From NCBI RefSeq assembly GCF_003236175.1, contig NZ_QKTW01000003.1, positions 62,001-126,000 on the forward strand: DNA of 64,000 nt, written 5' to 3'. Position 1 is the stretch's first letter, and every line of letters starts with the position of its first letter. Under the pieces are notes generated by a model that was not told the origin of the DNA, searched no databases, and saw only the letters and a program-made list of their open reading frames with translations. The position numbers and the translations under genes are program-made. The stretch comes from Taibaiella soli (GTDB lineage: Bacteria > Bacteroidota > Bacteroidia > Chitinophagales > Chitinophagaceae). Shown one piece after another: positions 36,010 through 49,738 of this stretch.

Positions 36010-36687
36010 ATGCAACAAAGACCTTTTGAATCGTTACGGCAGTTACCCAACAAATCATTAAATGAGCATGTCTCAGAACTGCCAGGGAGAAAACGAAGAC
36101 AATCAGAATCAGAAAGCGCGCTACTCCGGAGTCAGATAACGCCGCATTTCCTGTACAACACTCTCAATTTTTTCTATGCAAAATCATTACGGTTATCCGA
36201 TGAATTAGCTGACGGCATCATGAAGCTATCGGAAATCATGCATTATTCTTTGCGAAAGCATGATGCTGAAGGATTAGCTATTTTGAATGAAGAGTTAGAT
36301 CACATTCACAATGTTCTTGACTTAGCCCGATTCCGGTTTAGCGACAAGCTTTATCTGGAAACCGATTTTGACATATTTGACAACAATCTCAAAACAATTC
36401 CATTTCTCTTTATTACACTGGTGGAGAATATCCTGAAACATGGAGATCTCTCAGATGGTAATTATCCGGCAAAGGTGTCTATTAAACAATCTGACGACAA
36501 CACTATCTGTTATGCATCTACCAATAAAAAGCGGCGTAGCATAGCGGAAAAAACTACGAGTGTTGGCCTTGCCTATGTGGCGTCTCAGCTCAAAGATACC
36601 TTTGGAAATAACGGCTACCGGATGACCGTTGTCGAAGATGAACAGCAATATTTTATTACGGTTTCATTGCCTGTTGTAAAACGATAG
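36010..36687 (+). CDS. LytS-type histidine kinase without a sensor domain
   Basis: The protein has 225 residues, a His_kinase (YehU/LytS family) catalytic core only. The phospho-accepting His46 lies in SQITPHFLYNTLNFFYAKSL and the ATP-site N-box in PFLFITLVENILKHGD, with a C-terminal GLAYVASQLKDTFG. Family members usually have several membrane helices or TPRs before this core; here only a ~35-residue polar N-terminus is present. The preceding 240 bp show no membrane-coding frame. Its stop lies 4 bp before the response regulator start, so the two form a coupled pair. It probably controls the downstream lanthipeptide genes. Confidence 0.8.
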   Translation: MQQRPFESLRQLPNKSLNEHVSELPGRKRRQSESESALLRSQITPHFLYNTLNFFYAKSLRLSDELADGIMKLSEIMHYSLRKHDAEGLAILNEELDHIHNVLDLARFRFSDKLYLETDFDIFDNNLKTIPFLFITLVENILKHGDLSDGNYPAKVSIKQSDDNTICYASTNKKRRSIAEKTTSVGLAYVASQLKDTFGNNGYRMTVVEDEQQYFITVSLPVVKR

Positions 36688-36691
36688 CTAT

Positions 36692-37411
36692 ATGATCCGC
36701 TGCGTCATCTTAGATGATGAGGAGCATGCATTGGATGTGTTGACACAACATATCCAACGGCATGGTCAATTCTCATTAATAGCTGCAACGACTAGCATCA
36801 CGGAGGTTTTAAAACTTGCGTCTGATGGTGCTATGGATTTGTTGTTCCTCGATATTGACATGCCTGGTATTTCCGGGCTTGAACTGGCGAAATTAGTTGT
36901 CGATCAATGCGAGATAATATTTACCACCGGTTGTCCTGATTGTGCGCTGAATAGCTATGAAATTGGTGCGATCGACTATTTGCTGAAGCCGATATCGTAT
37001 ACGCGATTTTTAAAGGCAGCGTTAAAAGCGCGTGGGTTTATAAAAAGAACAAAAAGTGAAGCGTCGTCTGTAACAGGTTTTTTTTATGTCAAGACCGGTA
37101 TAAAGAACAGTGTGGTGAAAATTGCCATCGACAAGATCACGCACGTCGAAGGGCTTCAGAACTACGTTGGCATTTATCATGAAGGGAAAAAGACGATGGC
37201 TTACTTAACGCTAAAAGAGCTGGAAGCTGCATTGCCAAACGATCGTTTTGTGCGGGTGCATAGATCCTTTATCGTTTCCATTGCAGCAATCGTGAAAATA
37301 GAAAACAACTGTATAGAGTTAAACGATGTTAAGGATGTAATAAATGTCGGAGAAAGCTATAAAACAAAACTCTGGGAGATGGTTCGCAAACATACGCTCG
37401 GTGGTAGCTAA
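36692..37411 (+). CDS. LytTR-family response regulator
   Basis: The protein has 239 residues. The receiver domain (1-118) has acidic pocket residues in LDDEEHALD and phospho-acceptor Asp54 in LLFLDIDMPGISGLELA. The LytTR DNA-binding domain is at about 133-235 (DKITHVEGLQNYVGIYHEGK, RFVRVHRSFIVSIAAIVKIE). It is the cognate partner of the soluble kinase 4 bp upstream and most likely the local activator or repressor of the precursor genes, whose shared upstream block begins ~105 bp after its stop. Confidence 0.88.
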   Translation: MIRCVILDDEEHALDVLTQHIQRHGQFSLIAATTSITEVLKLASDGAMDLLFLDIDMPGISGLELAKLVVDQCEIIFTTGCPDCALNSYEIGAIDYLLKPISYTRFLKAALKARGFIKRTKSEASSVTGFFYVKTGIKNSVVKIAIDKITHVEGLQNYVGIYHEGKKTMAYLTLKELEAALPNDRFVRVHRSFIVSIAAIVKIENNCIELNDVKDVINVGESYKTKLWEMVRKHTLGGS

Positions 37412-48367: not shown

Positions 48368-48373
48368 AAGATT

Positions 48374-49738
48374 ATGCCAGAGCAGATTTACAACCGTACG
48401 AACATAGATGAATTGCCTGCGGCGCATTTAATGAACGAGGAAGAAACCGCACCCGTCCTGGATGAGATTATTTCCAGCAAACCCGGATACCTGGTGCGCA
48501 AAGGAACAGCTATTATTATGGTGGTGCTTGGATTGCTGATTGCCGGCGCCGGTTTCATACATTATCCCGATGTGCTGGAAGGGGCAGTCATGGTTACTAC
48601 CGATCCATTGCCTATCGAACTGAAAGCTCAGGCTAGTGGCAGAGTAGAGCGATTGTTTATTCATGAAAATGATCTTGTCGCGAAAAACACTGTTATAGCA
48701 GAGATAGAAAATAATACCGGGTTGCAGAATATTCAGATATTGGAAGAGCGAATTGACAGTATTCTTTCCGCATTACAACAAAATGATCTGATTGTACTGA
48801 ATCGTTTTACAATAGAGAATCTGCAATCGCTCGGTGACGGACAGACCGCTTATAATCAGTTGCTGCAAAATCTTTCAGCGTATTTGTTGGTGAAACAACA
48901 ACATGTTTTTGGCAAAAGGATGGACAACATTCAATTACAAAATAGTCAGTATCAAAAACTGGCAGTTATTAATAAAGAGGAGACAGAGCTTATCAATAGT
49001 GAATTAAAGCAAGCGGCCGAACAGTTTAAGGCTAATGAGAAATTATACAATGAGAAAGTAATCAGCAGGCAGGAGTATTTTGATGAAGCAGCAAAATTGC
49101 GCCAGAAACAATTAAGCCTGGAGCAGCAAAAGCGAGGTAGGGTACAAAACAGCATTAATATTTCCGACAACAGTAAGCAGCTTTTTGAAATGACTTATAA
49201 CAAAGAGGAAAAAGAAAATACGCTGATACTGGGAATACGGGAACAAATACGCAATCTCCAGAATTTTACGACAACGTGGCGCCGGCAGTTTTTGATCACT
49301 GCGCCATATTCCGGGAATATTTATTGGTTGAGACCTTTGCAGTCTAATGAATTGGTAAATGCTGGTGAAGCGCTCTTTTCAATTGTCCCCGATAAATTTC
49401 ATTACCTGGCCTATGTACAACTTTCTGCCAATGGGCTTGGTAAAATAAAAAAGGCGCAAACGACACATTTGTTGCTGGATCATTTTCCGTACAATGAGTA
49501 TGGATATTTGAAAGGAACAGTAACGTCTGTAAGTATGATACCACAAAGCCCCGGAACTACCCAGGAAGCAGGTGCGGCCACTTATCGCGCTATAGTGGCA
49601 TTGCCCGACTCACTGGTAACAAGCTATCATAAAAAAATTCCATTTTCTCCGGAGATGTCTGGTACTGCGCGTATTATTACCAAAGACAGAAATCTGTTAG
49701 AGCGTCTTCTTTCTTTTTTGGCAAAGGTAGAGAAGTAA
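48374..49738 (+). CDS. HlyD-family membrane fusion protein
   Basis: The protein has 454 residues: a cytoplasmic tail of ~40, one membrane helix (about 43-60), a biotinyl-like barrel (about 75-115, GRVERLFIHENDLVAKNTVI), a long coiled coil (about 125-290) and a C-terminal beta part (LITAPYSGNIYWLRPLQSNE). Such adaptors connect peptidase-type ABC exporters to an outer-membrane channel. No TolC-like gene is in the cluster, so the channel must be supplied from elsewhere. Last gene of the lanthipeptide locus. Confidence 0.9.
   Translation: MPEQIYNRTNIDELPAAHLMNEEETAPVLDEIISSKPGYLVRKGTAIIMVVLGLLIAGAGFIHYPDVLEGAVMVTTDPLPIELKAQASGRVERLFIHENDLVAKNTVIAEIENNTGLQNIQILEERIDSILSALQQNDLIVLNRFTIENLQSLGDGQTAYNQLLQNLSAYLLVKQQHVFGKRMDNIQLQNSQYQKLAVINKEETELINSELKQAAEQFKANEKLYNEKVISRQEYFDEAAKLRQKQLSLEQQKRGRVQNSINISDNSKQLFEMTYNKEEKENTLILGIREQIRNLQNFTTTWRRQFLITAPYSGNIYWLRPLQSNELVNAGEALFSIVPDKFHYLAYVQLSANGLGKIKKAQTTHLLLDHFPYNEYGYLKGTVTSVSMIPQSPGTTQEAGAATYRAIVALPDSLVTSYHKKIPFSPEMSGTARIITKDRNLLERLLSFLAKVEK

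What the first reader, a model, noticed from the sequence alone, without database searches (positions are those of the whole stretch)
36010..49738. Complete class I lanthipeptide locus with three precursors in a Bacteroidota genome
Seen: three double-glycine precursor genes with two Cys pairs each, LanC with zinc ligands (C247, C297, H298), full-length two-domain LanB, a C39-peptidase ABC exporter with Cys/His/Asp triad, an HlyD adaptor and a LytTR regulator pair, all on one strand. Known: pinensins from Chitinophaga are the model lanthipeptides of this phylum. Inference: the product is a multi-component or multi-variant lanthipeptide set. The identical LWSLIGCC and CIC segments with different middles are unlike any core I can name.
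Basis: partly seen in the sequence, partly recalled or inferred. Interest (0 to 1): 0.85.

Follow-up and report, generated by a model that had tools for sequence, protein, structure and literature searches.

The report
Lanthipeptide cluster with Ere-type hydrolase genes

Summary
In detail: 36010-49738 encodes three GG-leader precursors, LanC (C247/C297/H298), two-domain LanB, a C39 exporter (C14/H88/D110), HlyD and a LytTR/kinase pair, all on the + strand. The class is not new: the leaders pass NCBIfam's class I lanthipeptide cut-offs and carry LxLxKx5L+GG with a C39 exporter, the Bacteroidetes type of Walker et al. 2020. LWSLIGCC occurs in none of 100 LanB neighbourhoods looked at; no RiPP database was on hand.

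Overlooked: (1) two Ere/TIKI-fold hydrolases (55% identical, 2His/2Glu site intact, signal-like N-termini) between A2 and A3. Ere-family genes lie in 6 of 80 LanB loci, always upstream of lanB on its strand, against 0 of 60 control stretches. I read them as a recurrent accessory, most likely self-protection, less likely processing. (2) An ~85-nt non-coding block ends 37-40 nt before each precursor ATG, is more conserved between copies than the leader-coding DNA, and lies 35-39 nt before class I precursors in three Taibaiella species. It looks like a dedicated cis-regulator; DNA or RNA action is unresolved.

No dehydration, bioactivity or Ere activity is shown.

The parts
36010..36687 (+). Histidine kinase (PF06580 type), 225 aa, no membrane sensor part by eye
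   Evidence: of eight family LanB neighbourhoods with a kinase match seven hold one of 342-396 aa and one of 655 aa; the three frames just upstream are closed by stops
36692..37411 (+). LytTR response regulator
   Evidence: PF00072 and PF04397
37592..37680 (+). Conserved upstream element, copy 1, ends 38 nt before the A1 ATG
37719..37928 (+). Precursor A1, core GTLWSLIGCCKSTVEPDPTPDPSPSTIRRDSYCICTV
   Evidence: NF038153/NF038158; LxLxKx5L and GG
37934..38008 (+). Long hairpin after A1
   Evidence: -28.8 kcal/mol, z -4.9
38101..38187 (+). Conserved upstream element, copy 2, ends 40 nt before the A2 ATG
38228..38428 (+). Precursor A2, core GILWSLIGCCQSVVEPPQTSRTYDDSQCICTPKN
38493..38523 (+). Hairpin followed by a T-rich stretch after A2 (terminator/attenuator-like)
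   Evidence: -16.4 kcal/mol for the stretch folded, z -4.1; not on the list of the terminator scan, whose loop limit is 8
38550..39803 (+). Ere1: Ere/TIKI-family hydrolase, probably exported (ATG start chosen; the ORF opens with TTG at 38541)
   Evidence: PF05139 8e-7, over cut-off; E, H, E, H and R conserved
39853..41172 (+). Ere2: Ere/TIKI-family hydrolase, probably exported, 55% identical to Ere1
   Evidence: PF05139 6.7e-8, over cut-off; model matches EreC and BcR135; E64, H67, E95, R275, H304
41388..41476 (+). Conserved upstream element, copy 3, ends 37 nt before the A3 ATG
41514..41714 (+). Precursor A3, core GILWSLIGCCKSVPPPVQYSDKPVVDSDCICIGQ
41720..41749 (+). Hairpin between A3 and lanC (attenuator-like)
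   Evidence: 13 pairs; z -4.35
41816..42976 (+). LanC cyclase, Zn ligands C247, C297, H298
   Evidence: PF05147, residues, LanC-like solved structures
42987..46079 (+). LanB dehydratase, glutamylation and elimination domains
   Evidence: PF04738, PF14028; profile matches to NisB and other solved dehydratases, elimination part
46106..48367 (+). C39-peptidase ABC exporter
   Evidence: PF03412, PF00664, PF00005; C14/H88/D110
48374..49738 (+). HlyD-type adaptor
   Evidence: PF13437; TIGR01843 below its cut-off

Best explanation
This is a class I lanthipeptide cluster of the Bacteroidota double-glycine type. LanB dehydrates Ser/Thr in three paralogous cores, LanC closes thioether rings on the CC and CIC cysteines, and the C39-ABC exporter with HlyD removes the leader at GG and exports the product (inferred from the families). 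Each precursor has its own copy of a conserved promoter/5'-leader element, probably answering to the LytTR pair; hairpins after A2 and A3 let only some transcripts read on into ere1-ere2 and lanC-lanB-exporter, so that precursors outnumber enzymes (inferred). The two Ere-type proteins are exported to the cell envelope (inferred from signal-like N-termini) and act there on the peptide, most likely as self-protection by hydrolysing peptide that stays in or re-enters the periplasm (inferred). That Ere genes recur in such clusters is shown by co-location; their purpose is not.
For: Class I: leader models over cut-off, LanB/LanC/C39/HlyD domains and residues, leader motif as in Walker et al. (PMC7268733 passages). 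Selection on the precursors. Ere: Pfam over cut-off; all nine aligned cluster proteins (the sub-threshold L067 one included) keep G63, E64, H67, E95, G147, D149, R275, M279, H304, matching the 2His/2Glu plus basic residue of the superfamily (PMC6254334 passages) and the EreA H40/E68/H279 spacing (PMC6109786 passages); fold Z 18.6-19.4 to EreC/BcR135/BcR136, next 11.8. Recurrence: 6 of 80 LanB loci over Pfam's cut-off, and the same six with a profile made of 15 Ere proteins taken without regard to LanB, against 0 of 60 control 20-kb stretches; all six upstream of lanB on its strand; on a LanB tree the six Ere-bearing rows present (window included) need six changes, so no clustering. Element.
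Against: No chemistry shown. The window's Ere subfamily is rare: only the window's own genome among 294 family genomes (E<=1e-15) and 395 phylum genomes (E<=1e-12). Ere was not found in 74 of 80 LanB loci (68 of the 80 hold 4 kb or more upstream of lanB), so the pathway does not need it. In the 20 family neighbourhoods alone only one, T. chishuiensis L041, has an Ere gene by the background profile, so the matched comparison within the family is thin; the 60 controls come from family genomes, the 80 loci from the whole phylum. Ere proteins of clusters sit together on the Ere tree more than shuffled labels do (2 changes, shuffled mean 6.9), so separate recruitment is not shown. Model confidence is low (mean pLDDT 55). 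Ere genes are also scattered elsewhere in these genomes. No signal-peptide program was run. The element's folds are no more stable than shuffles. LytTR binding was not tested.
Confidence: 0.58

Rival explanations
1. Same cluster, but the Ere-type proteins are maturation enzymes: periplasmic hydrolases that trim the peptide, or hydrolyse or form an ester/amide in it, and not immunity.
For: Ere/TIKI enzymes hydrolyse esters and proteins (PMC6254334 passages); the genes lie among precursors and biosynthetic genes; a graspetide locus also holds an Ere homologue for which modification or resistance was proposed (PMC8939145 passages).
Against: C39-ABC plus HlyD should carry the peptide past the periplasm, where signal-bearing Ere proteins would be (inference); 74 of 80 LanB loci show no Ere gene.
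Confidence: 0.3
2. The Ere genes are unrelated passengers, e.g. general envelope or resistance genes that happened to insert in the cluster.
For: Ere genes occur widely in the family (51 of 147 genomes, own included); window Ere1/Ere2 are far from the other cluster Ere proteins (16-21% identity); only 1 of 20 family neighbourhoods has one by the background profile.
Against: 0 of 60 controls against 6 of 80 LanB loci; same strand and upstream in all six, four of them within 30 bp of lanC or lanB; duplicated and kept in the window, dN 0.37 with saturated dS.
Confidence: 0.12
3. The three peptides are not lanthipeptides in the end: the GG peptides are exported with disulfides or as signals and LanB/LanC act on something else.
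For: CC and CIC could form disulfides; A3 has only four Ser/Thr.
Against: Leaders fit the class I lanthipeptide models over cut-off; lanC-lanB follow A3 directly; one LanB in the genome at E<=1e-60; a conserved Ser stands before each Cys pair.
Confidence: 0.06

Closest known systems
Bacteroidetes class I lanthipeptides with LxLxKx5L/GG leaders and C39 protease (Walker et al. 2020, PMC7268733; NCBIfam NF038153/NF038158)
   Same: Leader motif, GG end, C39 exporter, LanB and LanC
   Different: Core sequences; two Ere-type genes ('esterase' does not occur in that paper's main text; its supplements could not be read); triplicated upstream element
Pinensins (Chitinophaga)
   Same: Phylum and class I enzymes
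   Different: Pinensin uses a split LanB (PMC7268733 passage); here LanB is one full-length protein
Taibaiella helva, T. koreensis and T. chishuiensis LanB clusters (L061/L046, L075/L047, L063/L041)
   Same: LanB 46-48% identical, C39-ABC 55-56%, HlyD, and the same upstream element before class I precursors
   Different: Different cores; of the three only T. chishuiensis has an Ere-family gene in the stretch fetched, between lanC and lanB
Ere/TIKI-superfamily hydrolases (EreA-D, BcR135/136, ChaN, RRSP)
   Same: Fold and 2His/2Glu active site
   Different: Divergent (no NCBIfam match), encoded in a lanthipeptide cluster; substrate unknown
Ere homologue in graspetide loci (PMC8939145, passages)
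   Same: Ere-related gene beside a RiPP precursor and a double-glycine peptidase
   Different: ATP-grasp graspetide, not LanB/LanC; gammaproteobacteria

Membership tests
Class I lanthipeptide cluster | Two-domain (glutamylation + elimination) LanB | tested here: met
   PF04738 and PF14028, residues 29-675 and 745-1012; FFIRYRD..H.R.RF and the ERYGG stretch align with solved dehydratases. NisB catalytic residue numbers were not mapped
Class I lanthipeptide cluster | Separate LanC with Cys-Cys-His zinc site | tested here: met
   PF05147; C247, C297, H298
Class I lanthipeptide cluster | Precursor with leader recognised by class I models, core with Ser/Thr and Cys | tested here: met
   NF038153 31.8-38.3 bits (cut-off 22) and NF038158 31.8-34.7 (cut-off 27); cores hold 10, 7 and 4 Ser/Thr and 4 Cys each
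Class I lanthipeptide cluster | Dehydrated, thioether-bridged product | not testable with these tools
   needs mass spectrometry
Double-glycine / C39 export type | GG leader end and C39-ABC with Cys-His-Asp | tested here: met
Pinensin family | Split LanB | tested here: not met
   single 1030-aa LanB
Ere/TIKI hydrolase superfamily (for Ere1, Ere2) | Ere fold | tested here: met
   Ere2 model: Foldseek E 9e-9 to 3.5e-6 for the six top chains, VIA Z 18.6-19.4 over 290-295 residues for the five top entries; caution: mean pLDDT 55. Ere1 was not folded
Ere/TIKI hydrolase superfamily (for Ere1, Ere2) | 2His/2Glu active site | tested here: met
   E64, H67, E95, H304 invariant in 9 aligned proteins
Erythromycin esterase proper (EreA/B/D) | NCBIfam Ere models | tested here: not met
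   no NCBIfam match up to E 0.1 for either protein
Ere/TIKI hydrolase superfamily (for Ere1, Ere2) | Hydrolase activity | not testable with these tools
   needs enzymology
Known Rfam cis-regulatory RNA (upstream element) | Match over a family's gathering score | tested here: not met
   no match on the element; the only row up to E 1 in 35300-42000 is 22 bits against a gathering score of 57, at the A2 hairpin

The most novel reading that the evidence does not exclude
Exported Ere/TIKI-fold hydrolases are a recurrent accessory class of Bacteroidota lanthipeptide clusters that hydrolyse the lanthipeptide in the envelope (enzymatic immunity in place of LanI/LanFEG), and the precursor genes of the window's species and of Taibaiella share a dedicated cis-regulatory element that stays with precursors whatever their core.
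Probability: 0.4. Interest if true: 0.65.

Novelty: new variant of a known kind. Interest (0 to 1): 0.5.

Why it matters
Class I lanthipeptide clusters are numerous in Bacteroidota genomes, but only pinensins had been isolated when Walker et al. wrote in 2020 (PMC7268733, passage). How Gram-negative producers protect themselves is, to my knowledge, little studied; a hydrolase family tied to some of these clusters gives a direct test, and a resistance-type fold acting on lanthipeptides would be of wider concern. The shared upstream element offers a handle to find and to switch on silent precursors.

Tried and rejected
Ere-specific scan of genome contigs with the two-row alignment A1 found no relative (two narrow patterns), and family and phylum scans found this subfamily only in the window's genome. 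Search of PDB sequences with Ere2 found nothing up to E 1; plasmids gave one weak Lysinibacillus Ere hit. The upstream element as a hidden ORF: rejected, indels shift the frame between copies and stops interrupt (read by eye). As a stable RNA: not supported by energy (z -0.79 to +0.74); of RNAalifold's 15 pairs one has a change on both sides, and so has one pair of my own 7-pair structure, a score that 87 of 500 shuffles reach. As a genome-wide repeat: rejected, three strong copies (the other 12 rows are short, E 0.6 or more). Cluster Ere proteins as one clade: not one side of a branch, but the label needs only 2 changes against 6.9 in shuffles, with several long branches and near-identical background rows. 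PADLOC: no match for Ere1/Ere2. Sigma-70 scan: fewer sites than shuffles, uninformative.

Dropped rows and slips: A1 was read one base off and so took no part; mended. The LanB tree used 62 of 81 rows; loci without a LanB frame of 800 aa or more were dropped, L086 among them. One search took 15 of 30 fetched background Ere loci, those with a long + strand frame at the match. The family neighbourhoods fetched are 20 stretches of the 36 LanB places listed. The model search left out L046 and L047, which are the same DNA as L061 and L075.
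Full report
OBSERVATION. The three precursors start at 37719, 38228 and 41514. Their leaders match NCBIfam models NF038153 and NF038158 ('class I lanthipeptide') over the curated cut-offs and carry LxLxKx5L and GG. Walker et al. (PMC7268733; passages, section 8) describe this leader type in a number of class I precursors of Bacteroidetes, many ending in GG, often with a C39 protease. LanB has both domains, LanC has C247, C297, H298 and the exporter C14, H88, D110. Over codons 1-42 dN is 0.09-0.16 with dS 2.6-3.7: old duplicates under strong purifying selection.

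HOW COMMON. LanB relatives at E<=1e-60 occur in 27 of 294 genomes of the family, own included. A scan of genome contigs gave 397 relatives, of which the best 80 are held as L061-L140; the first seven are from Taibaiella, Pedobacter, Mucilaginibacter and two MAGs, 39-48% identical. A narrow profile of the window's three leaders finds a precursor-like ORF (E<0.01) in 19 of the 80. None of 100 neighbourhoods (L041-L140) encodes LWSLIGCC in any frame, and the best core match is E 0.04; some precursors there do have CC followed by later Cys (L105, L123; L100, L110). So the locus is a new member of a described kind.

WHAT WAS MISSED: ERE GENES. Between A2 and A3 lie two genes, 49 bp apart, 55% identical as proteins, with N-terminal hydrophobic segments like signal peptides (by eye; no program was run). 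Both pass Pfam's cut-off for Erythro_esteras but match no NCBIfam model. The Ere2 model, low in overall confidence (mean pLDDT 55), matches EreC, BcR135 and BcR136 well above the rest (Foldseek; VIA Z 18.6-19.4, next ChaN 11.8). In nine aligned cluster proteins G63, E64, H67, E95, G147, D149, R275, M279 and H304 are invariant. This fits the 2His/2Glu site and nearby basic residue of the TIKI/Ere superfamily (PMC6254334, passages) and EreA H40/E68/H279 (PMC6109786, passages): the H-to-E spacing is 28 in both.

RECURRENCE. Among the 80 LanB loci, Ere-family genes over Pfam's cut-off lie in six: Taibaiella chishuiensis L063, Pedobacter terrae L069, Aquimarina L086, Vicingaceae L090, Bacteroidia L092, Bernardetia L131. 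A seventh, L067, has a gene between lanC and lanB that gives only a sub-threshold ChaN/TIKI match and is not counted. All six lie upstream of lanB on its strand, within about 4 kb; 68 of the 80 loci hold that much upstream DNA. In L063 the gene sits between lanC and lanB, overlapping lanC by 4 bp; in L069 1 bp before lanC; in L092 between a probable precursor and lanC; in L090 29 bp after lanC; in L131 after a precursor-like ORF with one gene before lanC; in L086 it is further off and lanC is on the other strand. A profile of 15 Ere proteins fetched without regard to LanB finds the same six of 80 loci (1.57 Mb) and 0 of 60 control stretches of 20 kb from LanB-bearing family genomes. In the 20 family neighbourhoods, that profile finds one, L041, which is L063 again. 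Background counts (51 of 147 family and 39 of 247 phylum genomes with a match, own included) predict 0.08-0.15 genes in the span by my rough, assumed genome sizes; the Poisson chance of six or more is then 3e-10 to 1.4e-8. On a LanB tree of 62 rows the six Ere-bearing rows present, the window's among them, need six changes, as many as shuffled labels do, so Ere has been gained or lost repeatedly. On the Ere tree, by contrast, cluster proteins lie together more than shuffles (2 changes against 6.9), with long branches and many near-alike background rows; whether Ere genes were recruited separately or passed between clusters is open.

FUNCTION OF ERE. Shown: family, fold (Ere2), intact site, co-location. 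Inferred: export and action on the peptide. By Pfam no gene between 36010 and 49738 is a LanFEG-type transporter, and none looks like LanI; the C39-ABC/HlyD route should bypass the periplasm; so I favour self-protection over maturation. A survey of graspetides left the same two options open for an Ere homologue there (PMC8939145, passages). In the held paper library three papers contain both 'erythromycin esterase' and 'lanthipeptide': PMC8939145, whose passages I read, and two that I saw only in the listing. A wider search with RiPP and lantibiotic (20 of 568 listed) and one with bacteriocin and immunity (20 of 501 listed) showed in their listings no report of Ere in LanB clusters. 'Esterase' is absent from the main text of Walker et al. 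and of a Bacteroidales RiPP survey (PMC10352776, passages); supplements could not be read, so Pfam tables there may list it.

UPSTREAM ELEMENT. Each precursor has its own upstream module. The block about 130 to 45 nt before the ATG is 85-86% identical between copies, the leader-coding DNA 74-79%, third codon positions about 60%. The genome holds three strong copies. A profile of the three finds it in T. helva and T. koreensis (E 5.5e-9 and 1.5e-6; next 0.28); a covariance model from these five then finds a sixth in T. chishuiensis (E 3e-7; next 0.41) that was not used in building it. All six end 35-40 nt before the ATG of an ORF (where several ATGs follow, the one that opens the leader was taken); the three Taibaiella ORFs pass the NF038153 cut-off. 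No Rfam match. A CGTG/CACG arm pair becomes AGTG/CACT in T. chishuiensis, which fits an RNA hairpin or a DNA inverted repeat alike. Common descent of the clusters may explain part of the likeness, but the window's copies stand next to saturated synonymous sites.

EXPRESSION. Hairpins follow A1, A2 and A3 (z -4.9, -4.1, -4.35); those after A2 and A3 share an ACGGCTAT/ATAGCCGT stem and precede ere1 and lanC. I infer partial read-through that keeps precursors in excess.

VERDICT. New variant of a known kind. Firm: class I lanthipeptide locus of the Bacteroidota GG type. Well supported: Ere genes as a recurrent minority accessory, and a precursor-linked cis-element. Open: chemistry, target, and the role of Ere. 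On checking I lowered the best explanation from 0.60 to 0.58 and raised the passenger rival from 0.10 to 0.12, because of the thin comparison within the family and the Ere tree.

Noticed in passing
window 36010-36687: The histidine kinase has, by eye, no membrane sensor part, unlike 342-396-aa (one 655-aa) kinases beside other LanB genes; frames just upstream are closed.
   Followed up: partly
window 49976-54388: Directly downstream, same strand: acyl carrier protein, lipid-A-acyltransferase-like, thioesterase and ketosynthase genes, like an aryl polyene/flexirubin-type cluster (label recalled); cluster-mining tools might merge the two.
   Followed up: partly
L063 (Taibaiella chishuiensis) 6984-15903: Two precursors and two LanC genes around one lanB, with a second LanB gene about 10 kb away in the same genome (G224); only the second precursor has the upstream element.
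   Followed up: no
L067 8891-9952: 353-aa gene with a signal-like start between lanC and lanB and a sub-threshold ChaN/TIKI match: possibly a further TIKI-type accessory.
   Followed up: partly
L069 13112-18149: Between lanB and the C39 exporter the Pedobacter terrae cluster holds a 574-aa protein, a 394-aa protein and genes that look, by eye, like glycosyltransferases.
   Followed up: no
L086 4131-7322: The Aquimarina RZ0 LanB is in two frames (737 and 289 aa): split, as in pinensin.
   Followed up: no
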